Positions 7,733 to 48,562 of a stretch of DNA of 64,000 nt are shown here, in pieces. Origin of the DNA: Pollenia angustigena (Eukaryota > Arthropoda > Insecta > Diptera > Polleniidae); the NCBI GenBank assembly GCA_930367215.1, contig OV884057.1:251250830-251314829 (forward strand), written 5' to 3'. A model generated the notes under the pieces. That model searched no databases, had not been told where the DNA came from, and saw nothing but the letters and a program-made list of their open reading frames with translations. Numbering within the stretch: position 1 is the first letter of the stretch; each line of letters starts with the position of its first letter. The position numbers and the translations under genes were made by a program.

Positions 7733-10700
7733 TATAGTGTTCTTGGGGGATGGGGATTTTCACAGAGGTGCACTTGTGCGGAAAGCTTTATGTCTGTCAT
7801 CCACTTGGGGATGACAAGAAGCGATTCCTTTGTCTGAAATTCCCAAGCAGCTCACTACTTCCGGTTTTATACCAAGTATCCCCTGGTAATGCCGTTTGGT
7901 CGCTCGTCTGACGGCAGCTAAAGTGAGAAGGCGTACAGCTGAGTAACCTGAATGGCATGTCATGTTATTGCGTCTCAGGTAAGTAGGTGTAATCCACTGA
8001 AACTCAACTGTTTCCCACCTGCCTAGAGGTTGTTGGCAGCCCCAACGCTAGGATCGGGTAAGGTGGCCCAATCAGTCGCTTTGCCTTAAACTCAATTTAT
8101 TAACGAAACTACAACTAATAATGATTATTATCAACCGATCCCCCCGATGACGACCTTCAGCATGAAAAAAATTTCTCGAATTGGAACATGGAACGTGCGC
8201 ACACTCTTAGATCCATTTAAACTGGCCCAAGTATGCAGAGAGTTTGCGAACTATAACCTGCTGCTTTTAGGTTTGTGCGAAACAAGATGGCCAGAATCAG
8301 GAGAACTCAATACCTCCGAAAACCAAAAATTTATTTATTCCGGAAAGCCGGATGACCAGCCAAGGTCAAGCGGTGTCGGGTTTCTGTTGTCGAAAGAAGC
8401 ATATGATGCAATGATTAATTGGAAGCCATATGGAGACAGAATAATAACTGCAAGATTTCGTTCAAGAGCTCGAAATCTTACCTGTGTGAAATGCTATGCA
8501 CCGACTGAAACGTCAGAATCAACACTGAAGGAAAGTTTTTACAGCCATTTAAATCGTGTGCTATCCGCAATTCCCCGCGGTGACATCGTTCTAATGATGG
8601 GCGATTTCAATGCACAGGTTGGCCCCGACAATATAGGACGAGAACATATAATGGGCAAACACGCAATTGGAAGGCTTACTGAAAATGGTAGGCTCTTTGC
8701 TGAGGCATGTGGCAACGCTAATCTTGTAATAGGGGGCACCTTATTTCCTCACAGAAGAGTACACAAGGCGACATGGGTATCGCCCGACAATGAGACAGAA
8801 AACCAAATCGACCACATAGCTATTAGCAAAACCTGGCGAAGTAGCCTCCTGGATGTGCGATCTAGGCGCGGTGCCGATTGCAACTCAGATCACCATCTCG
8901 TTGTTGGTAGCTTACGTATAAAAGTTGCTGCTATTCGTAAACCTGAGGCTGTAGCACGTAAATACGACGTAGTAAAGTTAAAAAATCCACAAACTCTTAA
9001 CAGCTACGTACAAGAGCTGAGAAATGGATTAGCTGTGCAACAACCCCATCCTACCTCTGAGTGGCCCTTAATTAAAAAAAGTTTTGTTGATGCTGCAAAG
9101 AAACATATTGGTCCCAAAGTACCTAAGAAAACCCATTGGATGTCTGATTTAACCTGGAACCTCATTCTTGAAAGGAAAGACCTAAAAGACGAACTTAACG
9201 CAGCCAGAACTCTCGGTGAAAAATCGTCGCGTAAAAAGGCATACACACAACATGATAAGCTGGTCAAACGTAGCGCCAGAAACGACAAAAGAATGTGGTA
9301 TAATAAGCTTGCATCGGATGCACAAAAAGCCTCAGCCGAGCATAGATCGAAGGACCTTTATAGCATCACAAAAAAACTCACTGGGAAAAACATCTCAAAC
9401 ACAAGACCGCTAAGAAACGCCCAAGGTGACCTCACAACATCCGCGCAAGATCAGCTAGAAATATGGAAGCAACATTATTCCAATATGCTTTGCACTACAA
9501 CTCCCACCCACCCAAAAATGTGTACCTGCGACTCTCACTTAATACGGCATGATATTTCCATTGAATGCCCAGATGTAGCAGAAGTTGTTGATGCAGTTGA
9601 TTCCTTAAAAGCGAATAAGGCCCCTGGGACCGACAATATATCGCCCGAAATGCTTAAAGCCGACTCTCAAACCACAGCCAACATATTGCTTCCCCTTATC
9701 CAGAACTTCTGGCGCACACAAGAACTTGACTCGAAGCTAAAAGAAGGTCTTATCGTAAATATTCCAAAAAAAGGTGACCTGAAAAACTGTAAGAACTGGC
9801 GGGGCATCACCATCCTTAGCGCAACCAATAAAGTTATTGCACAAATTATTAACAAGAGAATATCTGACACTGTACTAAAGGACCTAAGACCCGAACAAGC
9901 TGGCTTCCGACCCCAAAAATCTTGTATAGACCACATCAATAGTCTCCGAATAATCATAGAACAATCGAAAGAACTTCGTTCTCCGCTCTACCTGTTGTTT
10001 ATAGATTTTGAAAAAGCTTTTGATACCCTGAATCAAAACGCAATATGGAGTGCTCTAGCTTGTAAAGGGGTCCCACCCAAAATCATAAGCCTTACTCAGG
10101 AGCTGTACCGTAATGTTAAATGTCGTGTTGTCCACAATAATGCTCTGAGCAACAGTTTCGATGTTGTAGCTGGTGTTCGCCAGGGTTGTGTACTGTCTCC
10201 CTTGCTGTTTAACATCGTTCTAGATGTTATAGTTCGCAATGCTACTAAAGCAAAGAGAGGTATCAACTGGGGTCTTAACCAACAGCTCGAGAGCCTAGAA
10301 TATGCTGATGATATCTGCCTGCTTGCACACAGTTATAAAGATATGACATCTAAGTTGAAATGCATCGAAACAGAAGCTGCAAAAGCTGGCTTAAAAATAA
10401 ACATAGGCAAGAGCAAAGTGATGCGCTGCAATACAACAAACACAAACAAATTCTGCATAGGAAATACCGACCTGGAAGAAGTTACGTCTTTTTGCTACCT
10501 CGGCAGCATCATTACAAACACAGGTGGTTCTAGTAATGATGTCACGTACCGAATATCTAAAGCTAACCAAGCATTTGGTTCCCTTCGGTCAGTATGGAAA
10601 TCTTCAGCCATATCCAAGAACACCAAGATTCGCATTTTTAACTCTTGTGTTAAGTCTGTGCTCCTTTATGCATGTGAGACATGGAATACAACAGATCACG

Positions 10701-11108
10701 ACGTAAACACTCTACAAGTGTTTGTTAATCGATGTCTTCGACGCATCCTAAAGGTTTTTTGGCCCAACACCATCTCCAATATGGAACTTTGGAGTCAAAC
10801 AAATCAGCAGCCAATCCATACTGACATACTTAACCGCAAATGGCGCTGGATTGGCCATATGCTACGTAGGCCTCCAAATGACACAGCAAAAATTGCCATT
10901 GATTGGAATCCACATGGTACATCCCGCAGATTAGGCAGACCATCTCACACCTGGCGTTGACAATTGAACATCGAAATTAGACGCATCGATCTCAGCTGGG
11001 GAGAAATAAAACGTATATCATCAAACCGGACCGAATGGAATAGATTCGTTGTGACCCTTTGTTCCGAATAGGAACCACAGGACATTATATATATGTATAG
11101 TGTTCTTG
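7733..11108 (+). mobile_element. Full-length RTE-like LINE with 13-bp target duplication
   Basis: The 13-mer TATAGTGTTCTTG occurs at 7733-7745 and again at 11096-11108, bounding a 3,350-bp insertion (7746-11095). This has a GC-richer 400-bp leader (7746-8146), one long ORF, a very short 3' UTR, and a simple-repeat tail (TATATATATG) instead of poly(A). Size, single ORF and tail type fit the RTE clade of non-LTR retrotransposons. Both boundaries are intact, so the copy was not 5' truncated on insertion. Confidence 0.85.
8147..10960 (+). CDS. LINE ORF: apurinic-type endonuclease plus reverse transcriptase (one premature stop)
   Basis: The 937-codon frame begins at an ATG after CCCCCCG. Residues 1-260 form an exonuclease-endonuclease-phosphatase domain: TWNVRT (14-19), ETRW (45-48), GDFNA (152-156), NQID, and SDHH (247-250). 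Those are the metal- and phosphate-contacting motifs that nick target DNA. Residues about 480-780 form a reverse transcriptase with FIDFEKAFD (618-626) and YADD (719-722), the catalytic aspartates. A C-terminal RKWRWIGHMLRRP...GRPSHTWR motif is typical of RTE-like proteins. The stop at 10958-10960 (TGA after CGT) is premature: the same frame stays open for 36 more codons with matching C-terminal residues (WGEIKRISSNRTEW) to TAG at 11069-11071. A CGA-to-TGA change is the simplest explanation. Otherwise no frameshift was seen, so the copy is young. Confidence 0.9.
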   Translation: MTTFSMKKISRIGTWNVRTLLDPFKLAQVCREFANYNLLLLGLCETRWPESGELNTSENQKFIYSGKPDDQPRSSGVGFLLSKEAYDAMINWKPYGDRIITARFRSRARNLTCVKCYAPTETSESTLKESFYSHLNRVLSAIPRGDIVLMMGDFNAQVGPDNIGREHIMGKHAIGRLTENGRLFAEACGNANLVIGGTLFPHRRVHKATWVSPDNETENQIDHIAISKTWRSSLLDVRSRRGADCNSDHHLVVGSLRIKVAAIRKPEAVARKYDVVKLKNPQTLNSYVQELRNGLAVQQPHPTSEWPLIKKSFVDAAKKHIGPKVPKKTHWMSDLTWNLILERKDLKDELNAARTLGEKSSRKKAYTQHDKLVKRSARNDKRMWYNKLASDAQKASAEHRSKDLYSITKKLTGKNISNTRPLRNAQGDLTTSAQDQLEIWKQHYSNMLCTTTPTHPKMCTCDSHLIRHDISIECPDVAEVVDAVDSLKANKAPGTDNISPEMLKADSQTTANILLPLIQNFWRTQELDSKLKEGLIVNIPKKGDLKNCKNWRGITILSATNKVIAQIINKRISDTVLKDLRPEQAGFRPQKSCIDHINSLRIIIEQSKELRSPLYLLFIDFEKAFDTLNQNAIWSALACKGVPPKIISLTQELYRNVKCRVVHNNALSNSFDVVAGVRQGCVLSPLLFNIVLDVIVRNATKAKRGINWGLNQQLESLEYADDICLLAHSYKDMTSKLKCIETEAAKAGLKINIGKSKVMRCNTTNTNKFCIGNTDLEEVTSFCYLGSIITNTGGSSNDVTYRISKANQAFGSLRSVWKSSAISKNTKIRIFNSCVKSVLLYACETWNTTDHDVNTLQVFVNRCLRRILKVFWPNTISNMELWSQTNQQPIHTDILNRKWRWIGHMLRRPPNDTAKIAIDWNPHGTSRRLGRPSHTWR

Positions 11109-16078: not shown

Positions 16079-16087
16079 CATAAGATA

Positions 16088-16336
16088 ATGTGGGTGAAGA
16101 TAAATATGTCGAACTAAATATGTTTTGACGTAAGATGTTACGTCATCACATATTTAAAATTCGTTTTTCGTATTTGGGACAATTTTCCAAATATGTTTTA
16201 ATATTTATGACAAACTATTAAATATGTTTTCGTATTTGTGACATATTTAAAATATCAAATTACTAAATATCTTCGTATTTGTGACATATTTAATGTAATT
16301 CAAAAGAAATTAATAAGTTTATTAAAAATGCAGATT
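16088..16336 (+). repeat. Left terminal inverted repeat of the Foldback-like element
   Basis: The unique outer part of the arm contains about three diverged 30-bp subrepeats built on CGTATTTGTGACATATTTAA, and near the tip an inverted motif TGACGTAA-GATG-TTACGTCA (16127-16146). It is mirrored at 27151-27401. Confidence 0.9.
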
Positions 16337-19300
16337 CTCTGAGGGATTTTTGGAAATTGTGGACAAACTGGAAGACCTTACAGGACATGACATACCTCAT
16401 TTTAAAGATAATTAAGCCCACTTTTGTAATCCATTTCGGTTTTTGAGAAAAAAACCTCTGGGCTATTTTTAAAAAATTTTTTAAACTCTCAGATGTACTA
16501 CTACTGATTCCTGAGGGATTTTTGGAAATTGTGGACAAACTGGAAGACCTTACAGGACATGACATACCTCATTTTAAAGATAATTAAGCCCACTTTTGTA
16601 ATCCATTTCGGTTTTTGAGAAAAAAACCTCTGGGCTATTTTTAAAAAATTTTTTAAACTCTCAGATGTACTACTACTGATTCCTGAGGGATTTTTGGAAA
16701 TTGTGGACAAACTGGAAGACCTTACAGGACATGACATACCTCATTTTAAAGATAATTAAGCCCACTTTTGTAATCCATTTCGGTTTTTGAGAAAAAAACC
16801 TCTGGGCTATTTTTAAAAAATTTTTTAAACTCTCAGATGTACTACTACTGATTCCTGAGGGATTTTTGGAAATTGTGGACAAACTGGAAGACCTTACAGG
16901 ACATGACATACCTCATTTTAAAGATAATTAAGCCCACTTTTGTAATCCATTTCGGTTTTTGAGAAAAAAACCTCTGGGCTATTTTTAAAAAATTTTTTAA
17001 ACTCTCAGATGTACTACTACTGATTCCTGAGGGATTTTTGGAAATTGTGGACAAACTGGAAGACCTTACAGGACATGACATACCTCATTTTAAAGATAAT
17101 TAAGCCCACTTTTGTAATCCATTTCGGTTTTTGAGAAAAAAACCTCTGGGCTATTTTTTAAAAATTTTTTAAACTCTCAGATGTACTACTACTGATTCCT
17201 GAGGGATTTTTGGAAATTGTGTACAAACTGGAAGACCTTACAGGACATGACATACCTCATTTTAAAGATAATTAAGCCCACTTTTGTAATCCATTTCGGT
17301 TTTTGAGAAAAAAACCTCTGGGCTATTTTTAAAAAATTTTTTAAACTCTCAGATGTACTACTACTGATTCCTGAGGGATTTTTGGAAATTGTGGACAAAC
17401 TGGAAGACCTTACAGGACATGACATACCTCATTTTAAAGATAATTAAGCCCACTTTTGTAATCCATTTCGGTTTTTGAGAAAAAAACCTCTGGGCTATTT
17501 TTAAAAAATTTTTTAAACTCTCAGATGTACTACTACTGATTCCTGAGGGATTTTTGGAAATTGTGGACAAACTGGAAGACCTTACAGGACATGACATACC
17601 TCATTTTAAAGATAATTAAGCCCACTTTTGTAATCCATTTCGGTTTTTGAGAAAAAAACCTCTGGGCTATTTTTAAAAAATTTTTTAAACTCTCAGATGT
17701 ACTACTACTGATTCCTGAGGGATTTTTGGAAATTGTGGACAAACTGGAAGACCTTACAGGACATGACATACCTCATTTTAAAGATAATTAAGCCCACTTT
17801 TGTAATCCATTTCGGTTTTTGAGAAAAAAACCTCTGGGCTATTTTTAAAAAATTTTTTAAACTCTCAGATGTACTACTACTGATTCCTGAGGGATTTTTG
17901 GAAATTGTGGACAAACTGGAAGACCTTACAGGACATGACATACCTCATTTTAAAGATAATTAAGCCCACTTTTGTAATCCATTTCGGTTTTTGAGAAAAA
18001 AACCTCTGGGCTATTTTTTAAAAATTTTTTAAACTCTCAGATGTACTACTACTGATTCCTGAGGGATTTTTGGAAATTGTGGACAAACTGGAAGACCTTA
18101 CAGGACATGACATACCTCATTTTAAAGATAATTAAGCCCACTTTTGTAATCCATTTCGGTTTTTGAGAAAAAAACCTCTGGGCTATTTTTAAAAAATTTT
18201 TTAAACTCTCAGATGTACTACTACTGATTCCTGAGGGATTTTTGGAAATTGTGGACAAACTGGAAGACCTTACAGGACATGACATACCTCATTTTAAAGA
18301 TAATTAAGCCCACTTTTGTAATCCATTTCGGTTTTTGAGAAAAAAACCTCTGGGCTATTTTTAAAAAATTTTTTAAACTCTCAGATGTACTACTACTGAT
18401 TCCTGAGGGATTTTTGGAAATTGTGGACAAACTGGAAGACCTTACAGGACATGACATACCTCATTTTAAAGATAATTAAGCCCACTTTTGTAATCCATTT
18501 CGGTTTTTGAGAAAAAAACCTCTGGGCTATTTTTAAAAAATTTTTTAAACTCTCAGATGTACTACTACTGATTCCTGAGGGATTTTTGGAAATTGTGGAC
18601 AAACTGGAAGACCTTACAGGACATGACAAACCTCATTTTAAAGATAATTAAGCCCACTTTTGTAATCCATTTCGGTTTTTGAGAAAAAAACCTCTGGGCT
18701 ATTTTTAAAAAATTTTTTAAACTCTCAGATGTACTACTACTGATTCCTGAGGGATTTTTGGAAATTGTGGACAAACTGGAAGACCTTACAGGACATGACA
18801 TACCTCATTTTAAAGATAATTAAGCCCACTTTTGTAATCCATTTCGGTTTTTGAGAAAAAAACCTCTGGGCTATTTTTAAAAAATTTTTTAAACTCTCAG
18901 ATGTACTACTACTGATTCCTGAGGGATTTTTGGAAATTGTGGACAAACTGGAAGACCTTACAGGACATGACATACCTCATTTTAAAGATAATTAAGCCCA
19001 CTTTTGTAATCCATTTCGGTTTTTGAGAAAAAAACCTCTGGGCTATTTTTAAAAAATTTTTTAAACTCTCAGATGTACTACTACTGATTCCTGAGGGATT
19101 TTTGGAAATTGTGGACAAACTGGAAGACCTTACAGGACATGACATACCTCATTTTAAAGATAATTAAGCCCACTTTTGTAATCCATTTCGGTTTTTGAGA
19201 AAAAACCTCTGATTCCTGAGGGATTTTTGGAAATTGTGGACAAACTGGAAGACCTTACACGACATGACATACCTCATTTTAAAGATAATTAAGCCCACTT

Positions 19301-22300
19301 TTGTAATCCATTTCGGTTTTTGAGAAAAAAACCTCTGGGCTATTTTAAAAAAATTTTTTAAACTCTCAGATGTACTACTACTGATTCCTGAGGGATTTTT
19401 GGAAATTGTGGACAAACTGGAAGACCTTACAGGACATGACATACCTCATTTTAAAGATAATTAAGCCCACTTTTGTAATCCATTTCGGTTTTTGAGAAAA
19501 AAACCTCTGGGCTATTTTTAAAAAATTTTTTAAACTCTCAGATGTACTACTACTGATTCCTGAGGGATTTTTGGAAATTGTGGACAAACTGGAAGACCTT
19601 ACAGGACATGACATACCTCATTTTAAAGATAATTAAGCCCACTTTTGTAATCCATTTCGGTTTTTGAGAAAAAAACCTCTGGGCTATTTTTAAAAAATTT
19701 TTTAAACTCTCAGATGTACTACTACTGATTCCTGAGGGATTTTTGGAAATTGTGGACAAACTGGAAGACCTTACAGGACATGACATACCTCATTTTAAAG
19801 ATAATTAAGCCCACTTTTGTAATCCATTTCGGTTTTTGAGAAAAAAACCTCTGGGCTATTTTAAAAAAATTTTTTAAACTCTCAGACGTACTACTACTGA
19901 TTCCTGAGGGATTTTTGGAAATTGTGGACAAACTGGAAGACCTTACAGGACATGACATACCTCATTTTAAAGATAATTAAGCCCACTTTTGTAATCCATT
20001 TCGGTTTTTGAGAAAAAAACCTCTGGGCTATTTTTAAAAAATTTTTTAAACTCTCAGATGTACTACTACTGATTCCTGAGGGATTTTTGGAAATTGTGGA
20101 CAAACTGGAAGACCTTACAGGACATGACATACCTCATTTTAAAGATAATTAAGCCCACTTTTGTAATCCATTTCGATTTTTGAGAAAAAAACCTCTGGGC
20201 TATTTTTAAAAAATTTTTTAAACTCTCAGATGTACTACTACTGATTCCTGAGGGATTTTTGGAAATTGTGGACAAACTGGAAGACCTTACAGGACATGAC
20301 ATACCTCATTTTAAAGATAATTAAGCCCACTTTTGTAATCCATTTCGGTTTTTGAGAAAAAAACCTCTGGGCTATTTTTAAAAAATTTTTTAAACTCTCA
20401 GATGTACTACTACTGATTCCTGAGGGATTTTTGGAAATTGTGGACAAACTGGAAGACCTTACAGGACATGACATACCTCATTTTAAAGATAATTAAGCCC
20501 ACTTTTGTAATCCATTTCGGTTTTTGAGAAAAAAACCTCTGGGCTATTTTTAAAAAATTTTTTAAACTCTTAGATGTACTACTACTGATTCCTGAGGGAT
20601 TTTTGGAAATTGTGGACAAACTGGAAGACCTTACAGGACATGACATACCTCATTTTAAAGATAATTAAGCCCACTTTTGTAATCCATTTCGGTTTTTGAG
20701 AAAAAAACCTCTGGGCTATTTTTAAAAAATTTTTTAAACTCTCAGATGTACTACTACTGATTCCTGAGGGATTTTTGGAAATTGTGGACAAACTGGAAGA
20801 CCTTACAGGACATGACATACCTCATTTTTAAGATAATTAAGCCCACTTTTGTAATCCATTTCGGTTTTTGAGAAAAAAACCTCTGGGCTATTTTTAAAAA
20901 ATTTTTTAAACTCTCAGATGTACTACTACTGATTCCTGAGGGATTTTTGGAAATTGTGGACAAACTGGAAGACCTTACAGGACATGACATATCTCATTTT
21001 AAAGATAATTAAGCCCACTTTTGTAATCCATTTCGGTTTTTGAGAAAAAAACCTCTGGGCTATTTTTAAAAAATTTTTTAAACTCTCAGATGTACTACTA
21101 CTGATTCCTGAGGGATTTTTGGAAATTGTGGACAAACTGGAAGACCTTACAGGACATGACATACCTCATTTTAAAGATAATTAAGCCCACTTTTGTAATC
21201 CATTTCGGTTTTTGAGAAAAAAACCTCTGGGCTATTTTTAAAAAATTTTTTAAACTCTCAGATGTACTACTACTGATTCCTGAGGGATTTTTGGAAATTG
21301 TGGACAAACTGGAAGACCTTACAGGACATGACATACCTCATTTTAAAGATAATTAAGCCCACTTTTGTAATCCATTTCGGTTTTTGAGAAAAAAACCTCT
21401 GGGCTATTTTTAAAAAATTTTTTAAACTCTCAGATGTACTACTACTGATTCCTGAGGGATTTTTGGAAATTGTGGACAAACTGGAAGACCTTACAGGACA
21501 TGACATACCTCATTTTAAAGATAATTAAGCCCACTTTTGTAATCCATTTCGGTTTTTGAGAAAAAAACCTCTGGGCTATTTTTAAAAAATTTTTTAAACT
21601 CTCAGATGTACTACTACTGATTCCTGAGGGATTTTTGGAAATTGTGGACAAACTGGAAGACCTTACAGGACATGACATACCTCATTTTAAAGATAATTAA
21701 GCCCACTTTTGTAATCCATTTCGGTTTTTGAGAAAAAAACCTCTGGGCTATTTTTAAAAAATTTTTTAAACTCTCAGATGTACTACTACTGATTCCTGAG
21801 GGATTTTTGGAAATTGTGGACAAACTGGAAGACCTTACAGGACATGACATACCTCATTTTAAAGATAATTAAGCCCACTTTTGTAATCCATTTCGGTTTT
21901 TGAGAAAAAAACCTCTGGGCTATTTTTAAAAAATTTTTTAAACTCTCAGATGTACTACTACTGATTCCTGAGGGATTTTTGGAAATTGTGGACAAACTGG
22001 AAGACCTTACAGGACATGACATACCTCATTTTAAAGATAATTAAGCCCACTTTTGTAATCCATTTCGGTTTTTGAGAAAAAAACCTCTGGGCTATTTTTA
22101 AAAAATTTTTTAAACTCTCAGATGTACTACTACTGATTCCTGAGGGATTTTTGGAAATTGTGGACAAACTGGAAGACCTTACAGGACATGACAAACCTCA
22201 TTTTAAAGATAATTAAGCCCACTTTTGTAATCCATTTCGGTTTTTGAGAAAAAAACCTCTGGGCTATTTTTAAAAAATTTTTTAAACTCTCAGATGTACT

Positions 22301-25300
22301 ACTACTGATTCCTGAGGGATTTTTGGAAATTGTGGACAAACTGGAAGACCTTACAGGACATGACATACCTCATTTTAAAGATAATTAAGCCCACTTTTGT
22401 AATCCATTTCGGTTTTTGAGAAAAAAACCTCTGGGCTATTTTTAAAAAATTTTTTAAACTCTCAGATGTACTACTACTGATTCCTGAGGGATTTTTGGAA
22501 ATTGTGGACAAACTGGAAGACCTTACAGGACATGACATACCTCATTTTAAAGATAATTAAGCCCACTTTTGTAATCCATTTCGGTTTTTGAGAAAAAAAC
22601 CTCTGGGCTATTTTTAAAAAATTTTTTAAACTCTCAGATGTACTACTACTGATTCCTGAGGGATTTTTGGAAATTGTGGACAAACTGGAAGACCTTACAG
22701 GACATGACATACCTCATTTTAAAGATAATTAAGCCCACTTTTGTAATCCATTTCGGTTTTTGAGAAAAAACCTCTGATTCCTGAGGGATTTTTGGAAATT
22801 GTGGACAAACTGGAAGACCTTACACGACATGACATACCTCATTTTAAAGATAATTAAGCCCACTTTTGTAATCCATTTCGGTTTTTGAGAAAAAAACCTC
22901 TGGGCTATTTTAAAAAATTTTTTAAACTCTCAGATGTACTACTACTGATTCCTGAGGGATTTTTGGAAATTGTGACAAACTGGAAGACCTTACAGGACAT
23001 GACATACCTCATTTTAAAGATAATTAAGCCCACTTTTGTAATCCATTTCGGTTTTTGAGAAAAAAACCTCTGGGCTATTTTTAAAAAATTTTTTAAACTC
23101 TCAGATGTACTACTACTGATTCCTGAGGGATTTTTGGAAATTGTGGACAAACTGGAAGACCTTACAGGACATGACATACCTCATTTTAAAGATAATTAAG
23201 CCCACTTTTGTAATCCATTTCGGTTTTTGAGAAAAAAACCTCTGGGCTATTTTTAAAAAATTTTTTAAACTCTCAGATGTACTACTACTGATTCCTGAGG
23301 GATTTTTGGAAATTGTGGACAAACTGGAAGACCTTACAGGACATGACATACCTCATTTTAAAGATAATTAAGCCCACTTTTGTAATCCATTTCGGTTTTT
23401 GAGAAAAAAACCTCTGGGCTATTTTTAAAAAATTTTTTAAACTCTCAGACGTACTACTACTGATTCCTGAGGGATTTTTGGAAATTGTGGACAAACTGGA
23501 AGACCTTACAGGACATGACATACCTCATTTTAAAGATAATTAAGCCCACTTTTGTAATCCATTTCGGTTTTTGAGAAAAAAACCTCTGGGCTATTTTTAA
23601 AAAATTTTTTAAACTCTCAGATGTACTACTACTGATTCCTGAGGGATTTTTGGAAATTGTGGACAAACTGGAAGACCTTACAGGACATGACATACCTCAT
23701 TTTAAAGATAATTAAGCCCACTTTTGTAATCCATTTCGGTTTTTGAGAAAAAAACCTCTGGGCTATTTTTTAAAAATTTTTTAAACTCTTAGATGTACTA
23801 CTACTGATTCCTGAGGGATTTTTGGAAATTGTGGACAAACTGGAAGACCTTACAGGACATGACATACCTCATTTTAAAGATAATTAAGCCCACTTTTGTA
23901 ATCCATTTCGGTTTTTGAGAAAAAAACCTCTGGGCTATTTTTAAAAAATTTTTTAAACTCTCAGATGTACTACTACTGATTCCTGAGGGATTTTTGGAAA
24001 TTGTGGACAAACTGGAAGACCTTACAGGACATGACATACCTCATTTTTAAGATAATTAAGCCCACTTTTGTAATCCATTTCGGTTTTTGAGAAAAAAACC
24101 TCTGGGCTATTTTTAAAAATTTTTTAAACTCTCAGATGTACTACTACTGATTCCTGAGGGATTTTTGGAAATTGTGGACAAACTGGAAGACCTTACAGGA
24201 CATGACATATCTCATTTTAAAGATAATTAAGCCCACTTTTGTAATCCATTTCGGTTTTTGAGAAAAAAACCTCTGGGCTATTTTTAAAAAATTTTTTAAA
24301 CTCTCAGATGTACTACTACTGATTCCTGAGGGATTTTTGGAAATTGTGGACAAACTGGAAGACCTTACAGGACATGACATACCTCATTTTAAAGATAATT
24401 AAGCCCACTTTTGTAATCCATTTCGGTTTTTGAGAAAAAAACCTCTGGGCTATTTTTAAAAAATTTTTTAAACTCTCAGATGTACTACTACTGATTCCTG
24501 AGGGATTTTTGGAAATTGTGGACAAACTGGAAGACCTTACAGGACATGACATACCTCATTTTAAAGATAATTAAGCCCACTTTTGTAATCCATTTCGGTT
24601 TTTGAGAAAAAAAACCTCTGGGCTATTTTTAAAAAATTTTTTAAACTCTCAGATGTACTACTACTGATTCCTGAGGGATTTTTGGAAATTGTGGACAAAC
24701 TGGAAGACCTTACAGGACATGACATACCTCATTTTAAAGATAATTAAGCCCACTTTTGTAATCCATTTCGGTTTTTGAGAAAAAAACCTCTGGGCTATTT
24801 TTAAAAAATTTTTTAAACTCTCAGATGTACTACTACTGATTCCTGAGGGATTTTTGGAAATTGTGGACAAACTGGAAGACCTTACAGGACATGACATACC
24901 TCATTTTAAAGATAATTAAGCCCACTTTTGTAATCCATTTCGGTTTTTGAGAAAAAAACCTCTGGGCTATTTTTAAAAAATTTTTTAAACTCTCAGATGT
25001 ACTACTACTGATTCCTGAGGGATTTTTGGAAATTGTGGACAAACTGGAAGACCTTACAGGACATGACATACCTCATTTTAAAGATAATTAAGCCCACTTT
25101 TGTAATCCATTTCGGTTTTTGAGAAAAAAACCTCTGGGCTATTTTTAAAAAATTTTTTAAACTCTCAGATGTACTACTACTGATTCCTGAGGGATTTTTG
25201 GAAATTGTGGACAAACTGGAAGACCTTACAGGACATGACATACCTCATTTTAAAGATAATTAAGCCCACTTTTGTAATCCATTTCGGTTTTTGAGAAAAA

Positions 25301-26246
25301 ACCTCTGATTCCTGAGGGATTTTTGGAAATTGTGGACAAACTGGAAGACCTTACACGACATGACATACCTCATTTTAAAGATAATTAAGCCCACTTTTGT
25401 AATCCATTTCGGTTTTTGAGAAAAAAACCTCTGGGCTATTTTAAAAAAATTTTTTAAACTCTCAGATGTACTACTACTGATTCCTGAGGGATTTTTGGAA
25501 ATTGTGGACAAACTGGAAGACCTTACAGGACATGACATACCTCATTTTAAAGATAATTAAGCCCACTTTTGTAATCCATTTCGGTTTTTGAGAAAAAAAA
25601 CCTCTGGGCTATTTTTAAAAAATTTTTTAAACTCTCAGATGTACTACTACTGATTCCTGAGGGATTTTTGGAAATTGTGGACAAACTGGAAGACCTTACA
25701 GGACATGACATACCTCATTTTAAAGATAATTAAGCCCACTTTTGTAATCCATTTCGGTTTTTGAGAAAAAACCTCTGATTCCTGAGGGATTTTTGGAAAT
25801 TGTGGACAAACTGGAAGACCTTACACGACATGACATACCTCATTTTAAAGATAATTAAGCCCACTTTTGTAATCCATTTCGGTTTTTGAGAAAAAAACCT
25901 CTGGGCTATTTTAAAAAAATTTTTTAAACTCTCAGATGTACTACTACTGATTCCTGAGGGATTTTTGGAAATTGTGGACAAACTGGAAGACCTTACAGGA
26001 CATGACATACCTCATTTTAAAGATAATTAAGCCCACTTTTGTAATCCATTTCGGTTTTTGAGAAAAAAACCTCTGGGCTATTTTTAAAAAATTTTTTAAA
26101 CTCTCAGATGTACTACTACTGATTCCTGAGGGATTTTTGGAAATTGTGGACAAACTGGAAGACCTTACAGGACATGACATACCTCATTTTAAAGATAATT
26201 AAGCCCACTTTTGTAATCCATTTCGGTTTTTGAGAAAAAAACCTCT
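16337..26246 (+). repeat. 172-bp tandem array, left arm (about 58 copies)
   Basis: The unit (for example 16501-16672) begins CTGATTCCTGAGGGATTTTT. It contains an AT-rich self-complementary tract (TTTTTAAAAAATTTTTTAAA) and repeats with under about 1% divergence. Four shortened 125-bp units (beginning 19084 and about 22649, 25180 and 25650) lack the same 47 bp. Each is followed by a unit with TTACACGAC in place of TTACAGGAC. Because 172 is not divisible by three, every unit opens the same 78-codon minus-strand frame in a new phase. These frames are by-products of the repeat, not genes. Confidence 0.95.
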
Positions 26247-27150
26247 GTAAGGTCTTCCAGTTTGTCCACAATTTCCAAAAATCCCTCAGGAATCAGTAGT
26301 AGTACATCTGAGAGTTTAAAAAATTTTTTAAAAATAGCCCAGAGGTTTTTTTCTCAAAAACCGAAATGGATTACAAAAGTGGGCTTAATTATCTTTAAAA
26401 TGAGGTATGTCATGTCCTGTAAGGTCTTCCAGTTTGTACACAATTTCCAAAAATCCCTCAGGAATCAGTAGTAGTACATCTGAGAGTTTAAAAAATTTTT
26501 AAAAAATAGCCCAGAGGTTTTTTTCTCAAAAACCGAAATGGATTACAAAAGTGGGCTTAATTATCTTTAAAATGAGGTATGTCATGTCCTGTAAGGTCTT
26601 CCAGTTTGTCCACAATTTCCAAAAATCCCTCAGGAATCAGTAGTAGTACATCTGAGAGTTTAAAAAATTTTTTAAAAATAGCCCAGAGGTTTTTTTCTCA
26701 AAAACCGAAATGGATTACAAAAGTGGGCTTAATTATCTTTAAAATGAGGTATGTCATGTCCTGTAAGGTCTTCCAGTTTGTCCACAATTTCCAAAAATCC
26801 CTCAGGAATCAGTAGTAGTACATCTGAGAGTTTAAAAAATTTTTTAAAAATAGCCCAGAGGTTTTTTTCTCAAAAACCGAAATGGATTACAAAAGTGGGC
26901 TTAATTATCTTTAAAATGAGGTATGTCATGTCCTGTAAGGTCTTCCAGTTTGTCCACAATTTCCAAAAATCCCTCAGGAATCAGTAGTAGTACATCTGAG
27001 AGTTTAAAAAATTTTTTAAAAATAGCCCAGAGGTTTTTTTTCTCAAAAACCGAAATGGATTACAAAAGTGGGCTTAATTATCTTTAAAATGAAGTATGTC
27101 ATGTCCTGTAAGGTCTTCCAGTTTGTCCACAATTTCCAAAAATCCCTCAG
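26247..27150 (-). repeat. 172-bp tandem array, right arm (about 5 inverted copies)
   Basis: These are the same units as the left arm in inverse orientation. They include a unit carrying the rare GTACA variant (26436) next to the rare T/A-tract length variant (26487), which pairs with the left-arm unit at 17149-17222. The right arm is therefore a mirror of the outermost left-arm units, and the left arm has expanded since. Confidence 0.95.
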
Positions 27151-27401
27151 AGAATCTGCATTTTTAATAAACTTATTAATTTCTTTTGAATTACATTAAA
27201 TATGTCACAAATACGAAGATATTTAGTAATTTGATATTTTAAATATGTCACAAATACGAAAACATATTTAATAGTTTGTCATAAATATTAAAACATATTT
27301 GGAAAATTGTCCCAAATACGAAAAACGAATTTTAAATATGTGAAGACGTAAGATGTTACGTCAAAACATATTTAGTTCGACATATTTATCTTCACCCACA
27401 T
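27151..27401 (-). repeat. Right terminal inverted repeat of the Foldback-like element
   Basis: This is the inverse complement of 16088-16336 with only a few differences. The 4-base spacer of the TGACGTAA/TTACGTCA-type motif is inverted relative to the left arm (27345-27363). Confidence 0.9.
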
Positions 27402-27410
27402 CATAAGATA

Positions 27411-30476: not shown

Positions 30477-30779
30477 AGCCAAATGTTCAAATTTGTAAAA
30501 AATGTTGAGAAACATTAATTACTTCACACGAAAATCAATGTTATCTATCACGAGATTTTTTACAATTTGACGTTTTTATACCTGCAAAGTATGCAACATT
30601 ATTTTGCTTATGTAAACACACCCCGCATGTATTTTACTAAAAATAATTTTTTTTTATTAAAAAATTTAATAAAAAAGAAAATAAAAATGGATAAAAAACT
30701 GTTACCAGGTGTGTTATTAAATACTTTAATAAATTCTTCAAGCTTAAGGTCACTTATTTATAAAATTAATTAAAATATT

Positions 30780-30834
30780 TTTATTTTCAATATTTCGATT
30801 TCCGTTGGAAATCTTCTTCAGGAAATTTTTTTTT
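30780..30834 (-). ncRNA. Hammerhead-ribozyme-like motif, left arm (minus strand)
   Basis: This is the inverse copy of the motif at 32360-32412: CTGAAGA (30821 down to 30815), stem II GATTTCC-aac-GGAAATC, GAAA (30796 down to 30793), then TATT. Its presence in both arms is a direct result of the inverted 3' end. Confidence 0.55.
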
Positions 30835-31217
30835 TAAAATAAAATAAAATTTGACAATAAATGGAAAAATAAAATATGGAAAAATAAATTTTAAAATTTC
30901 AAAAAACAAAATTATCATAATAAATTTAAAATTCCATTCTACAAACTTTAAACAAAAAGACAAACAAACAAAAAAGGAAAACAAAATTTTTAAATTTATT
31001 CAAAGCCTAAAACCTATTTTAATGTCTCTTTCCGTCAATAATAAGCTATGCCATCTGAAATTTATTTTAAAAATAATCAAGGACAAATACCTATTTTAAT
31101 TATCCCTTACATCAACCTATTTATTTTTATTCAATAAATGTCTATAAATTTGAGCTAAGCCCTCAGTATCTTTTTTAAAATTAATCCTTTAATTCTTTTG
31201 ATCAAAATATTAAGTTC

Positions 31218-32072
31218 ACTATTGAAAGGGAATTGAATTTTTCAATTCCATATTTGGTCACATTGGTGATTAGGAAAGGAAGTAGATTATTGGTAGATTG
31301 GTATCAAAAACCAACCTCATCAGGTAGAATTTTAAATTATTATTCTAAACACCCAAAGAGAATTATCATTAACACAGCTAGGAATCTAATAGACAGGATA
31401 TTAACAATTAGTGACAATATATTTTAAAGGAAAAATAAGGAAATTATTGGGAATATTTTGAGGAATAATAGTTTTCCCAACAAATTGATTTGCAAATTAA
31501 TAAGACAATACAATATAGATAGATCTCGTAATATTGATGAGATTTCGGCACCACGTATTTATAAGTCATTAACTTATGTACCTGGGTTTTCAGAAAGATT
31601 AGAAAACTCGAATATATATGATAAAGGGAAATACAGAATGGCACATAAGGTGATTAATAATGTAGGGAAATTATTCACAAAAACTAAGGATAGATTTCTA
31701 AAGTCAGATAGGTCGAATTTAGTTTATAAGATTCATTGTGGTGGCAATGATAATGAACAATGTAGGAAAATATATGTAGGAACAACTGGGACAAAACTAA
31801 AAATTAGATTAGCTGGACATAAACATGACCAAAAATATAGGAATTATAATTCAGCCCATGGAACGGCGTTATCAACTCATTGTAGGGATTTTAATCATTA
31901 TCCTGATTTTGAAAACACATCAATTTTGAATACGGAAAGTTTTAAGAAACGTAGATATATGTTAGAAATGTTGCAGATAAATAATGTTCCATTTGAGAAA
32001 AGGATTAATTTTAAAAAAGATACTGAGGGCTTAGCTCAAATTTATAGACATTTATTGAATAAAAATAAATAG
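31218..32072 (+). pseudogene. Penelope-like RT end plus GIY-YIG endonuclease (one in-frame stop)
   Basis: The single reading frame is broken only by TAA at about 31425-31427. The first part (from about 31233) has LVIRKGSRLLVDWYQKPTSSGR and LNYYSKHPKRIIINTARNLID, the thumb/linker region after the PLE reverse transcriptase. The second part, after NSFPNKL, leads into SNLVYKIHCGGNDNEQC (GIY motif) and RKIYVGTTGTKLKIRLAGHKHD (YIG motif with the catalytic-type arginine). A conserved ALSTHCRDFNH follows, then the C terminus at 32072. The palm and fingers of the reverse transcriptase are missing (5' truncation at the inverted junction). The stop is a likely point mutation in an otherwise intact and therefore recent copy. 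Confidence 0.85.
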
Positions 32073-32359
32073 GTTAATGTAAGGGATAATTATAAATAGG
32101 TATTTTTCCTTGATTGTTTATAAAATAAATTTCAGATGGCATAGCTTATTATTGACGGAAAGGGACATTAAAATAGGTTTTAGGCTTTGAATAAATTTAA
32201 AAATTTTGTTTTCCTTTTTTGTTTGTTTGTCTTTTTGTTTAAAGTTTGTAGAATGAATTTTAAATGTATTATGATAATTTTGTTTTTTGAAATTTTAAAA
32301 TTTATTTTTCCATATTTTATTTTTCCATTTATTGTCAAATTTTATTTTATTTAAAAAAA

Positions 32360-32412
32360 AAAAAAAATTTCCTGAAGAAGATTTCCAACGGAAATCGAAA
32401 TATTGAAAATAA
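32360..32412 (+). ncRNA. Hammerhead-ribozyme-like motif, right arm
   Basis: CTGAAGA (32372-32378) is followed after one extra base by a perfect 7-bp stem II GATTTCC/GGAAATC (32380-32396) with loop AAC. Then come GAAA (32397-32400) and TATT, where the last T would be the cleavage-site base. ATTTC before the core pairs with GAAAAT after it to give stem I. Stem III would be a single short pair as in other PLE hammerheads. It lies about 290 bp after the PLE stop codon. Confidence 0.6.
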
Positions 32413-32529
32413 AAATATTTTAATTAATTTTATAAATAAGTGACCTTAAGCTTGAAGAATTTATTAAAGTATTTAATAAAAAAAAAAGGTAGAAGAAATA
32501 GGACTATAATTTACTACAGGTGTGTTATT

Positions 32530-37114: not shown

Positions 37115-38326
37115 ACAGCTTTCGAAAAATTGCAAGAATTTTGCTTGTTTTTTTAACTTAGCAAACAGCATTACAAGTTTTTAAGCAAATACATCATGCG
37201 TAGTTTTCTGACATTTTTCAACTTCTTCAAAATTTTAATTACAAAACAATTTAAAACTACGGAGGTTAATAACAATTTATAGAGCCGAAAATTTAAATAA
37301 ACGTTGCAGTCGACTTTATAGAGCCATTGAAGGGTATTTAAATAGTTCAATAACTCCACAAACTTTTTAATAATTTCCAATCACACAAAACTAACAAGAT
37401 TAAATTTTTACTACCCAATATATAATATATAAACAATATGTCCTTTTTTAAAGTTTTATCATTTTAAAAAGTATCTTGTTACTTAAATGCTGTATTTTCT
37501 ATTTCTCGGACCTCGCCTTTAATAAAAGGAAAATCAATTATTTTCCTTTTCATAACTTAACTTTAAATAACATTTGCCTCTAGAATCAAATAACAGAACA
37601 GAGAAATAGAAAAAGTAGATCAAATTAAAAAAAAAAAAAAATATATATAAATCGATTTAATTAATGGCACAACTGCCAATTGCAGGCAATGAAACAACCA
37701 CTCCTTGACAAAACAAAGCAGTTTTATCAGAAATGGAAAACTGAAGATTGAGAGAAGTTTTACTCATGGCCAAAAAAGAAATGTTTGAAATACAATTTGA
37801 ATGACCATTAAAAAATCTTTAAACTTAAGAAAGCTAACAGAAATATAAATCTGTTTGAAAAAATTTTAAAAAGAAAAACATTGATTTGATCCTTTTCTTA
37901 TGAAATTGTTTTTTTGATTTTAAGGAAAAGGACAAAAAAGGATTCTTTTACAAAAAACAAGATATTATATACAATTTTAGCCCAGATTTAAATGTTTGAT
38001 TTGTGTTTATAAATGAATTGTAACACAAGCTGAACGAAAAGGGCTTGAGTTTGATTTTTGTGATAAAGTATTTAAAAATACATAAAAGTAGTCAATAAAA
38101 TCCATTGATACTACTTAAATTTTTCTTTTTTTCATTTTGTTATCTAAAACATACGTTTTTCTTTTATTCTTTAAAAAATTTAGTTAGATGATTCGATTTT
38201 ATTGATTGTAGAAGCCAACCACTTAGATTAAAAAAAAAAAACAGGAGTACTTAACAAAATCTTGCTAGTTAAATATTGTTTGGCTAAACAATCATGCCTG
38301 TATTCATAACATTTTTTAAAATTTTT
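37115..38326. other. AT-rich interval, no gene seen
   Basis: Long A/T runs and only short, biased open frames. Confidence 0.5.
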
Positions 38327-41300
38327 AATAATAATTAGTATTGTGGTTATTTTGTTGAACTATTTATGGTTTTTAATCCAAATTTTTAATATTTTTAATT
38401 AGGCTTAAGTTCATCAAATTTAATTTTCATTAAATTATTTTTATGAAGAAAGGAATTTTACAACATGAAAATTAATAAAAATTTACTGATAATTTTTCAT
38501 TCTTGACTCAATCTGGGCTCGAACCCAGGCGTTTTTACTGACAGGTTACCCTGACATGTTTCGATTGCAACCACTCAATCTCCTCAGAGGGCTTGCCGTT
38601 TAACACTCGCAGCCATCGGCGACTGCTGACGTCATTAGTCAAACATCAATCCTTAAACCAAATTGTATTTAATCTTTGGTAGATCGAAATTTGCTTTGAA
38701 TGATTATCTATTTTAATTTATTTTACATGTTCTTCCTTTACTTCTGTTTATTCGTACTTTTGTCAAGAATTCTTCTTGAAGTTCAAAGTACATATTTTGT
38801 TTTTTTGTGTTTTCATTTTTTTTGTCTTTCTTTTTCTTACTGACCTTTTCAGCACAACTTGAAGGACAAATGCAAACATAGAGCTCGTGCCTTAGCTTTA
38901 ACAATAATTAGTATTGTGGTTATTTTGTTGAACTATTTATGGTTTTTAATCCAGATTTTTGATATTTTTAATTAGGCTTAAGTTCATCAAATTTAATTTT
39001 CATTAAATTATTTTTATGAAGAAAGGAATTTTACAACATGAAAATTAATTAAAATTTACAGATAATCTTCCATTCTTGACTCAATCTGGGCTCGAATCTA
39101 GGCGTTTTTACGGACAGGTTACCCTGACATGTTTCGATTGCAACCACTCAATCTCCTCAGAGGGCTTGCCGTTTAACACTCGCAGCCATCGACGACTGCT
39201 GACGTCATTAGTCAAACATCAATCCTTAAACCAAATTGTATTTAATCTTTGGTAGATCGAAATTTGCTTTGAATGAATATCTATTTTAATTTATTTTACA
39301 TGTTCTTCATTTACTTCTGTTTATTCGTACTTTTGTCAAGAATTCTTCTTGAAGTTCAAAGTACATATTTTGTTTTTGTTTTTTAATTTTTTTTGTCTTT
39401 CTTTTTCTTGCTGACCTTTTCAGCACAACTTGAAGGACAAATGCAAACATAGAGCTCGTGCCTTAGCTTTAACAATAATTAGTATTGTGGTTATTTTGTT
39501 GAACTATTTATGGTTTTTAATCCAAATTTTTGATATTTTTAATTAGGCTTAAGTTCATCAAATTTAATTTTCATTAAATTATTTTTATGAAGAAAGGAAT
39601 TTTACAACATGAAAATTAATTAAAATTTACAGATAATCTTCCATTCTTGACTCAATCTGGGCTCGAATCTAGGCGTTTTTACGGACAGGTTACCCTGACA
39701 TGTTTCGATTGCAACCACTCAATCTCCTCAGAGGGCTTGCCGTTTAACACTCGCAGCCATCGACGACTGCTGACGTCATTAGTCAAACATCAATCCTTAA
39801 ACCAAATTGTATTTAATCTTTGGTAGATCGAAATTTGCTTTGAATGAATATCTATTTTAATTTATTTTACATGTTCTTCATTTACTTCTGTTTATTCGTA
39901 CTTTTGTCAAGAATTCTTCTTGAAGTTCAAAGTACATATTTTGTTTTTGTTTTTTAATTTTTTTTGTCTTTCTTTTTCTTGCTGACCTTTTCAGCACAAC
40001 TTGAAGGACAAATGCAAACATAGAGCTCGTGCCTTAGCTTTAACAATAATTAGTATTGTGGTTATTTTGTTGAACTATTTATGGTTTTTAATCCAAATTT
40101 TTAATATTTTTAATTAGGCTTAAGTTCATCAAATTTAATTTTCATTAAATTATTTTTATGAAGAAAGGAATTTTACAACATGAAAATTAATTAAAATTTA
40201 CAGATAATCTTCCATTCTTGACTCAATCTGGGCTCGAATCTAGGCGTTTTTACGGACAGGTTACCCTGACATGTTTCGATTGCAACCAATCAATCTCCTC
40301 AGAGGGCTTGCCGTTTAACACTCGCAGCCATCGACGACTGCTGACGTCATTAGTCAAACATCAATCCTTAAACCAAATTGTATTTAATCTTTGGTAGATC
40401 GAAATTTGCTTTGAATGAATATCTATTTTAATTTATTTTACATGTTCTTCATTTACTTCTGTTTATTCGTACTTTTGTCAAGAATTCTTCTTGAAGTTCA
40501 AAGTACATATTTTGTTTTTGTTTTTTCATTTTTTTTGTCTTTCTTTTTCTTGCTGAACCTTTTCAGCACAACTTGAAGGACAAATGCAAACATAGAGCTC
40601 GTGCCTTAGCTTTAACAATAATTAGTATTGTGGTTATTTTGTTGAACTATTTATGGTTTTTAATCCAAATTTTTAATTAGGCTTAAGTTCATCAAATTTA
40701 ATTTTCATTAAATTATTTTTATGAAGAAAGGAATTTTACAACATGAAAATTAATTAAAATTTTTATTGATAATCTTTCATTCTTGTCCGTGGCCGGGGCT
40801 CAAACCCCGGCCGGCAGGTTACCATGACATGTTTCGATCGCAACCACTCGATCTCCTCAGATGGATTTGCGTCTTACACTCGCAGCCATCGACGACTGCT
40901 GGCGTCAATAGTCAAACATCAATCCTTAAACCAAATTGTATTTTAACCTTTGGTAGATCGAAATTTACTTTCCTGAATGATTACCCATTTTAATTGATTT
41001 TACATACATGTTTTCTGCTTACTTCTGTTTTCCCGTACTTTTGTCAAGAATTATTCTTGTTTCTTCCATTATTGTCCTTCCCTTTCCTGTTGACCTGTTT
41101 TTGCACAACTTGAAGGACAAATGTAGACATAGAGCCCGTGCCCTAGCTTTAACAATAATTAGTATTGTGGTTGTTTTGTTGAACAATTTATGGTTTTTAA
41201 TCCAAATTTTTAATAATTTTAATTAGGCTTAAGTTCATCAAATTTAGGCCCTAAATTTGTAAAACGCAAAAGCAACGCTAAAAATTATATTGAAAGCAAA

Positions 41301-41550
41301 AACAAAATCGAAAATATTTCATAATTTTGTTGTGGTTTTCTATAGAAATGAATATTGAATTTTTAAATTTTAAACGCTGCATATCTTGTGGCGTTGATAA
41401 TTTTTAAACGCAATATGTATTTCTGTAGAAAGCAACAACAAAATTTTGAAAAATTTTTGACATTGTTTATGCTTTCCATGTTATTTTTGGGATTGCGTTG
41501 CGTTTTATAAATTCTGGGCCATAATTTTCATTAAATTATTTTTATGGAGT
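38327..41550. repeat. 571-bp tandem repeat, five-plus copies
   Basis: The anchor ATAATTAGTATTGTGGTT recurs at 38331, 38904, 39475, 40046, 40618 and 41155, giving periods of 573, 571, 571, 572 and 537 bp. Units 2-4 are almost identical, while units 1 and 5 are diverged. Each unit carries TCATTCTTGACTCAATCTGG followed by GGGCTCGAA. On the minus strand this is a Pol III B-box-like GATTCGAGCCC or GGTTCGAGCCC, with GATTGAGTGGTTG upstream resembling an A box. The array could be an amplified SINE-containing segment. No protein frame spans units. Confidence 0.9.
41247..41520. mobile_element. PIF/Harbinger-like MITE inside the last 571-bp unit
   Basis: GGCCCTAAATTTGTAAAACG at the left and the complement of GGCCCAGAATTTATAAAACG at the right are terminal inverted repeats. 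The insertion splits the unit phrase CATCAAATTTA/ATTTTCATTAAATT, which is continuous in the other units, so its limits are exact. TTA on the left and ATA on the right are compatible with a 3-bp duplication with one change. Confidence 0.75.
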
Positions 41551-47620: not shown

Positions 47621-48562
47621 AACAAGTTAGAGTGCTATATTCGGCTGTGCCGAATCTTTGATACCCTCCACCGACAGCTCGAATGTTTAAGGAGTAATAT
47701 CTGTATGATGTTATTATTATCTTAAACTGTGACAATTTGTTATTAATTATGGTTTTAGGCGACTAAAGTGTTTTCCGGGAGTAGGGTTTCTATGGGGCCT
47801 AGGGTAAATTATGTACCGATCTTCACGAAATTTCACAGTATCATTTATAGTCCTATAAAACTGTGACGAGCCAAAATTTGTTATGATTGCATTATGTTTT
47901 TCGGTTTTAGGCGTACTAAACTGTTTTCCGGTAGTAGGGTTTATATGGGGCCTAAGGTAAATTATAGACCGATCGTCACGAAATTTCACAGTGTTATTTC
48001 TAGTCCTAAAAAACTGTGACGTACCAAATTTTGTTACGCTAGCGTTATGTTTTACGGTTTCAGACGTACTAAACTGTTTTCCGGCAGTATTGTTTATATG
48101 GGGCTTAGGGAAAATTATGGACGGATCATCACGAAATTTAACAGCGTTATTTCCAGTCAAATAAAACAAATTTTTGCAAAATCTTGTCCCATTCCGTGCC
48201 TTGTTCCAGCATTTATGTTATTTTTTGTAACAAAATTATCAATTTTTTTTGGTTCCACATTTTGATTCATAGCTCTGGTCCTACTAAACCGATTTTGCTG
48301 GGTTTTAATCCCAAACTGCTTAGGATAAGTACAAGCAATTTGGCACCAAGTTTGTTCATTTCTTTTGAGTTGTTCGAAAGTGAGCGTGTTTTCAACAGAC
48401 GGACAGACAGACGGACATGGCTAAATCGACTTAGAATTACTCAAGGACCCAGAATATATATACTTTATGGGGTCTGAGATGAATAATAAAAAAGCTTCAC
48501 ACGGAATGACAAACTTTATATACCCTCTTCATAACTAATTGTGGTGGAGGGTATAAAAAAAG
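47621..48562 (+). mobile_element. Dispersed dipteran repeat with 152-bp internal tandem units
   Basis: The left end has a perfect hairpin ATTCGGC-TGT-GCCGAAT (47639-47655) followed by GATACCCTCCACC. The right end has GGTGGAGGGTATAAAA, giving inverted ACCCTCCACC/GGTGGAGGGT. Three diverged tandem units start at GGTTTTAGGCG (47751), 47903 and 48056, about 152 bp each, and share TTTTCCGG, ATATGGGGCCTA and CACGAAATTTCACAG. Pyrimidine/purine CAGACGGACAGACAG and ACCCAGAATATATATAC follow. No transposase. The plan resembles non-autonomous Helitron-type repeats of flies, but superfamily ends are not diagnostic. Confidence 0.7.

What the first reader, a model, noticed from the sequence alone, without database searches (positions are those of the whole stretch)
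16079..27410. An 11.3-kb Foldback-like element built from about 63 copies of a 172-bp satellite-like unit
Unique inverted tips, tandem arrays in opposite orientation, and an exact 9-bp duplication (CATAAGATA) show that what looks like a satellite array is a single transposed object. It is very asymmetric (about 58 versus 5 units). This links a mobile Foldback to the birth of a satellite with near-nucleosomal period.
Basis: partly seen in the sequence, partly recalled or inferred. Interest (0 to 1): 0.88.

Follow-up and report, generated by a model that had tools for sequence, protein, structure and literature searches.

The report
Transposon carrying satellite-like arrays inside
An 11-kb block that looks like a piece of satellite DNA is really one copy of a jumping gene whose inverted ends have filled up with repeats; that kind of link is already known from beetles and fruit flies, but this genome shows many stages of it side by side, next to a relative that still has its transposase-like gene.

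Summary
Confirmed: window 16088-27401 (11,314 bp) is a two-armed foldback element with 245-bp inverted tips, 59 forward and 6 reverse unit starts (172 bp) and an exact 9-bp duplication. It belongs to a dispersed family in a 1.37-Gb genome. Of 22 two-ended copies read, 14 have an exact 9-bp duplication, against 0 of 462 cross-pairs. One other copy has paralogous empty sites; none was found for the window copy. Array sizes vary widely; one 17.9-kb copy with a single outer 9-bp duplication holds three foldback modules. Some copies keep pieces of an internal gene with a Ulp1-like domain. A relative shares 17 terminal bases, a 9-bp duplication and an in-register homologous 164-bp unit (17 and 20 copies) around an open frame of 1038 codons with that domain. 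This is the architecture described for Rehavkus transposons. The unit is rare: 413 exact 36-mers genome-wide, about 392 in loci bearing a tip, so no free satellite has arisen. Foldback-to-satellite is in print (Tetris, 2014). Verdict: non-autonomous, Rehavkus-like foldback transposon; new variant of a known kind.

The parts
16079..16087 (.). left target-site duplication CATAAGATA
   Evidence: exact copy at 27402; only two occurrences in the window
16088..16332 (+). left unique tip, 245 bp; starts ATGTGGGTGAAGATAAATATGTCGAAC
   Evidence: inverted copy at 27157-27401, 242 of 245 identical; same tip found at many other places
16127..16144 (.). small palindrome in the tip whose 4-base loop is inverted relative to the right tip
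   Evidence: alignment; of 54 tip copies matched by a pattern in fetched loci, 52 have the other orientation, 1 is mixed and only this one is flipped
16171..16249 (+). 31-bp subrepeats inside the tip (mirrored at 27234-27324)
   Evidence: TRF
16333..26247 (+). left arm: 59 unit starts of the 172-bp unit
   Evidence: within-element unit distance 0.0050 against 0.0108 to units of other copies
19083..19207 (+). first of four 125-bp units (47-bp deletion); the others start at 22648, 25179 and 25649
18567..21099 (+). block of units whose marker variants recur in the same order
   Evidence: markers 63A, 164C, 160T, 74T, 65T recur at 22132-24317 with offsets of 21, 21, 19, 19, 19 units
22132..24317 (+). 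second copy of that block
26245..26247 (.). inversion junction with 3-bp overlap CTG
26245..27156 (-). right arm: 6 unit starts of the 172-bp unit, inverted
   Evidence: carries variants 141T and 32T in the same order from the tip as the left arm
27157..27401 (-). right unique tip, 245 bp
27402..27410 (.). right target-site duplication CATAAGATA

Best explanation
[quoted passage not shown] Ancestral elements carried a gene for a transposase-like protein with a Ulp1 protease domain and a Cys-rich tail, between two inverted ends, each a unique tip followed by a few copies of a ~160-170-bp unit. Copies such as the window's lost the gene, so the two inverted arrays meet directly. The protein is supplied in trans by a gene-bearing relative that recognises the shared end GTGGGTGAAGATAAATA and duplicates 9 bp on insertion. 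Inside the element the arrays grow and shrink by block duplication and deletion (unequal exchange or replication slippage), so arms become unequal, and the two arms are at times copied onto each other. SHOWN: anatomy, 9-bp duplications, empty sites of one sister copy, gene remnants in sister copies, shared ends and homologous units with a gene-bearing relative, variable array sizes, shared arm variants. INFERRED: that this protein is the transposase, that it acts in trans, and the recombination mechanism.
For: 22 two-ended copies, 14 with identical 9-bp flanks, 0 of 462 cross-pairs. L010 (target AAATACATA) aligns across the junction with single-target sites in L036, L031 and L033. L010 and L022 share a ~1-kb core between inverted arrays (98.5%), L014 holds 350 bp of it and L018 43 bp; the core encodes Peptidase_C48 (Pfam E 1.1e-6, 29 bits, cut-off 20.7; SENP2 E 8.2e-6). 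Genome search with that protein: 84 matches. The relative L042+L040+L043 is an 11,161-bp element, flanks AAAAAAATA/AAAAAAATA, ends (A/T)AGTGGG type sharing GTGGGTGAAGATAAATA, 17 forward and 20 reverse units, and an open frame of 1038 codons. The 172- and 164-bp units align in register round the whole unit, 111 of 156 ungapped columns, score 72 against a maximum of 42 in 300 two-base-block shuffles. L039 is a decayed copy with a 91% tip, 172-type units and remains of the same gene. L009 and L012 lie on different chromosomes and share one inversion junction but have 7/10 and 1/14 units.
Against: 8 of 22 two-ended copies lack an exact 9-bp duplication (L017 has an 8-bp match, L023 8 of 9; L009, L014, L015, L024, L026 and L044/45 have none). 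No paralogous empty site for the window copy. No Pfam transposase domain in the 1038-codon frame or its relatives at E up to 10, the D..D..E reading is by eye, and the fold model was too poor to use (mean pLDDT 33). The frame is stop to stop; its first ATG is codon 149, so the true start is unknown. The duplication AAAAAAATA of the relative is of low complexity. Two more distant gene copies (44% and 37% identical) showed no ~170-bp arrays or shared inverted repeat within the 1.5 kb read on each side. Arms resemble each other more than the average arm of other copies in 5 of 6 elements, but more than every other arm in only 2 of 6. A simple lag test for block duplication was not significant (212 of 2000 shuffles as high).
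Confidence: 0.83

Rival explanations
1. A genomic satellite array that happens to be bounded by inverted copies of an unrelated repeat, or that was captured by a transposon, so that the satellite came first.
For: The array makes up about 95% of the element, and unit sequences are 99% alike, as in a satellite.
Against: About 392 of 413 exact 36-mers lie in loci with at least part of a tip; the tip-adjacent unit carries the same extra T in each of the arms listed for six elements; the gene-bearing relative has homologous arrays in the same place.
Confidence: 0.05
2. A foldback element of another superfamily (for example P-type like Galileo, or Phantom-type Mutator) rather than Rehavkus-like.
For: Foldback anatomy arises in several superfamilies (PMC4079207 and PMC3573991, passages). 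Pfam gives no superfamily for the protein.
Against: 9-bp duplication, ~164-172-bp satellite in the inverted ends, Cys-rich tail: the combination described for Rehavkus. No Rehavkus sequence was at hand to test it.
Confidence: 0.2
3. Assembly artefact: collapsed or invented inverted arrays from hairpin or chimeric long reads.
For: Arms are nearly identical; L020 has a 500-N run beside its array; L015 lies at the centre of a longer inverted flank (97.8% over 600 bp).
Against: Arms differ in unit number and variants, tips are followed by different unique flanks with direct 9-bp duplications in 14 of 22 copies, and junctions differ between copies.
Confidence: 0.04

Closest known systems
Rehavkus transposons (Rehavkus-1_TC of Tribolium castaneum, satellite TCsat23)
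   Same: 9-bp duplication; satellite of 164-bp unit in the inverted termini; single large protein with a PHD finger reported (PMC6446971 and PMC10218199, passages only). The relative L040 has a 164-bp unit too.
   Different: TCsat23 arrays are mostly 5 and 8 monomers and no longer than nine; here arms reach 59 units, the gene is gone, and one copy holds three modules. Sequence identity to Rehavkus-1_TC could not be tested.
Tetris, foldback transposon of Drosophila virilis (TIR-220 satellite)
   Same: Non-autonomous, foldback, ~220-bp units in the inverted ends, 8-10-bp duplications; proposed to seed satellite arrays of up to 66 units (PMC4079207: abstract, first parts of Results and Discussion).
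   Different: For Tetris no gene-bearing partner was found and free TIR-220 arrays exist; here a gene-bearing relative is found and no free array. Sequences were not compared.
Galileo (P superfamily), Drosophila
   Same: Long inverted ends with internal tandem repeats whose number differs between the two ends of one copy; copies reduced to two ends (PMC3573991, passages).
   Different: P-type transposase; up to three internal repeats in the passages seen.
Drosophila FB (foldback) elements
   Same: Inverted ends with internal tandem repeats and 9-bp duplications (recalled, no call).
   Different: Not compared by sequence here.

Membership tests
Foldback-type transposon (structural class) | long inverted ends with internal tandem repeats and little or no core | tested here: met
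Foldback-type transposon (structural class) | target-site duplication and dispersed copies | tested here: met
   14 of 22 two-ended copies exact; empty sites for L010
Rehavkus | 9-bp target-site duplication | tested here: met
Rehavkus | satellite or minisatellite repeats in the inverted ends (164 bp in Rehavkus-1_TC) | tested here: met
   172-bp and 164-bp units; only the anatomy is compared, TCsat23 sequence not at hand
Rehavkus | PHD finger in the protein | tested here: inconclusive
   Cys-rich tail with C-x2-C spacing after the Ulp1 domain, Asp where PHD has His, read by eye on the alignment; no PHD match in Pfam
Rehavkus | transposase falls in the Rehavkus clade | not testable with these tools
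   Repbase sequences not held; protein search found only P0001-P0003
Mutator-like superfamily (MULE) | DDE catalytic domain recognisable as MULE | tested here: inconclusive
   no Pfam match at E up to 10 in four proteins; conserved FIDATG (398), CCDFSW (475), CYCH (522), SNSPVEGYF (680) in three full-length sequences; model too poor; genome search with PF10551 not answered
Tetris | sequence relation to Tetris ends or TIR-220 | not tested
   no Tetris sequence was compared

The most novel reading that the evidence does not exclude
In this transposon lineage the satellite unit is an inherited, working part of the ends (kept in register between two diverged families, perhaps since the common ancestor with beetle Rehavkus), and the element is a self-contained satellite nursery: arrays are moved by transposition at a small size and then grow in place, up to fused multi-module copies like the 17.9-kb C4 element, which are the first step towards a macrosatellite.
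Probability: 0.35. Interest if true: 0.7.

Novelty: new variant of a known kind. Interest (0 to 1): 0.5.

Why it matters
The Tribolium paper leaves open whether the long array or the transposon comes first and whether longer TCsat23 arrays exist (passages). Here one assembled genome holds a graded series: copies with 1 unit per arm, with tens of units, with arms of 59 against 6, and a fused three-module copy, beside a relative with an open transposase-like frame and arrays of its own. About 95% of exact unit matches lie in loci that still bear a tip, which speaks for the transposon as the source. The step from mobile element to satellite can thus be studied copy by copy, with junctions and target duplications as clocks.

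Tried and rejected
Considered and set aside: a satellite captured by inverted repeats; an assembly product; P-type or Phantom-type filing (see rivals).

Led nowhere: the unit and the tip in IMG/VR viral contigs, 0 matches each. Protein search with the 284-aa fragment, none. AlphaFold2 of P0002 with two relatives, mean pLDDT 33, so no fold search was made. Pfam at E up to 10. Lag test for block duplication, not significant; the ordered-marker test that followed (0 of 200,000 with order and offset within 2; 0.001 for order alone) used five markers picked after seeing the data. Empty site of the window copy, not found. Two distant gene copies show no ~170-bp arrays in 1.5 kb on either side. Tip identity left to right within a copy averages 0.961 against 0.952 between copies over 19 copies, a weak difference because interrupted tips (L022, L028, L031) were left in.

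Left out of counts: units aligned over less than 165 bp were dropped (274 kept, from 19 loci; L030, with a shorter unit, is nearly absent). score only the best candidates, so copy numbers are lower bounds.

Full report
What is there. The window holds one element, 16088-27401, flanked by CATAAGATA on both sides. Two 245-bp tips in inverted orientation enclose two arrays of a 172-bp unit in opposite orientation, 59 forward and 6 reverse starts, with no other sequence between them. The tips differ at three positions, two of them from a flipped 4-base loop in a small palindrome of the left tip; of 54 tip copies matched by a pattern in fetched loci this is the only one in that orientation.

It is a dispersed family. 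The genome has 1.37 Gb in 31 contigs, and a tip search listed dozens of places on five large chromosomes (only the best 38 of 329 and 40 of 301 candidates were scored). I read 22 copies with both ends. Fourteen have identical 9-bp flanks: L010, L011, L012, L013, L016, L018, L019, L022, L025, L028, L031, L030/L046, L052-54 and the window; L017 has an 8-bp match, L023 8 of 9 bases, and L009, L014, L015, L024, L026 and L044/45 have none. Of 462 cross-element pairs none is identical. The insertion of L010 lies in a repeated sequence whose other copies in L036, L031 and L033 carry the target once. For the window copy no empty site was found; only its own two flanks matched well, with partial repeats beside.

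Array dynamics. Each two-armed copy examined switches from forward to reverse units (L024 switches three times), and the switch point differs between copies, except that L009 and L012, on different chromosomes, share it exactly while having 7/10 and 1/14 units. Sizes range from 597 bp (L023) to 11.3 kb (window), 12.4 kb (L030/L046, C4:3548566-3560989, its right tip interrupted), 14.3 kb (C1:9764524-9778854, no duplication) and 17.9 kb (C4:10021844-10039701). The last has one outer duplication, CATAAACTA, and inside it 13 forward, 19 reverse, 18 forward, 5 reverse, 7 forward and 19 reverse units, with two identical truncated tip palindromes and two stretches of other sequence between. Within the window copy, variants 141T and 32T follow each other in the same order inward from both tips, so one arm was copied from the other or both from a shorter ancestor. 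Five marker variants recur in the same order 19-21 units further on in the left arm, which I read as duplication of a block of about 20 units followed by a 2-unit change; a plain lag test was not significant (212 of 2000), the ordered test was (0 of 200,000) but was chosen after seeing the data. Units are more alike within copies (mean distance 0.0090) than between (0.0144), and nearest neighbours lie in the same copy for 37% against at most 13% in 200 shuffles (274 units). The arm test supports copying between arms in part: own arms are closer than the mean of others in 5 of 6 copies and closer than every other in 2 of 6.

Where the gene is. L010 and L022 keep a core of about 1 kb between their arrays, L014 350 bp of it and L018 43 bp. 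It encodes a Ulp1-type protease domain (SENP2 in the PDB) and a Cys-rich tail. The larger inserts of L011 and L019 showed no match to it and look like other elements. Searching the genome with this protein gave 84 matches, among them L039, a decayed copy with our tip at 91%, our units and gene remains, and L040, an open frame of 1038 codons (first ATG at codon 149). Around L040 stand 17 forward and 20 reverse copies of a 164-bp unit, then tips starting AAGTGGGTGAAGATAAATACGCCGAG, then AAAAAAATA on both sides: an 11,161-bp element. Its first 17 bases from GTGGG equal those of our tip. Its unit aligns with ours in register all round (111 of 156 ungapped columns; score 72 against at most 42 in 300 shuffles). 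A search with its protein found six further places at 98-99% identity: five that match residues 1-858 only, and L041, whose frame is broken in two. It also found more distant lineages down to 27% identity with long open frames; in two of these, 1.5 kb on each side showed no such arrays. Outside this genome the protein has relatives in two metagenome contigs and in Lucilia cuprina. That the host is a higher fly is my inference from that and from five large chromosomes.

How it works. I read the element as a non-autonomous derivative moved in trans. The shared end and the 9-bp duplication are shown; trans action and the catalytic role of the protein are inferred. The protein has conserved motifs FIDATG, CCDFSW, CYCH and SNSPVEGYF, which I take by eye for a D..D..E domain of Mutator type; Pfam does not confirm it, and the fold model failed. 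The unit may serve as an extra binding site, as proposed for Galileo (PMC3573991, passages); this was not tested.

What is known. PMC6446971 (passages) gives for Rehavkus a 9-bp duplication, ends of 26-400 bp, one frame with a PHD finger and a minisatellite. PMC10218199 (passages) reports a 164-bp satellite, TCsat23, in the inverted ends of the 9.5-kb Rehavkus-1_TC, mostly five and eight monomers, never more than nine. PMC4079207 (abstract, first parts of Results and Discussion) describes Tetris and states that foldback elements generate satellite DNA. What the searches made here (open-access papers only) did not list is a case with arms of tens of units in a mobile copy beside a gene-bearing relative and a fused three-module copy; I did not search further.

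Is it a satellite? The exact 36-mer of the unit occurs 413 times. The window and the loci read hold 329 and the C1 element at 9.76 Mb another 66 by subtraction from the list; all but three of these (L050, where only 1.5 kb was read) lie in loci with at least part of a tip, so about 392 of 413. There is no sign of a large free array in this assembly, though unassembled heterochromatin is not seen.

Noticed in passing
L015 (C2:160625200-160628100): A copy whose flanks are inverted copies of each other (97.8% over the 600 bp compared) and which has no direct duplication, as if the element were the centre of a larger inverted duplication.
   Followed up: partly
window 30714-32479: Long inverted arms (83-98% in pieces) around a 204-aa frame (31458-32072) that looks like a GIY-YIG endonuclease of a Penelope-like element (by eye).
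   Followed up: no
window 38221-41344: Direct repeats about 571 bp apart, six copies; pieces of the same repeat in L034, L037 and L022.
   Followed up: partly
window 47747-48167: 153-bp tandem repeat, also at 94% beside the array in L020 and at 82% in L010.
   Followed up: partly
window 8147-10960: Open frame of 937 aa with endonuclease and reverse transcriptase domains (non-LTR retrotransposon).
   Followed up: no
window 56012-56681: Pair of repeats about 398 bp apart (93-95% alike).
   Followed up: no
L025 and L029: Two copies on different chromosomes with the same right flank TATCTAGAGAAG: shared target repeat or duplicated segment.
   Followed up: no
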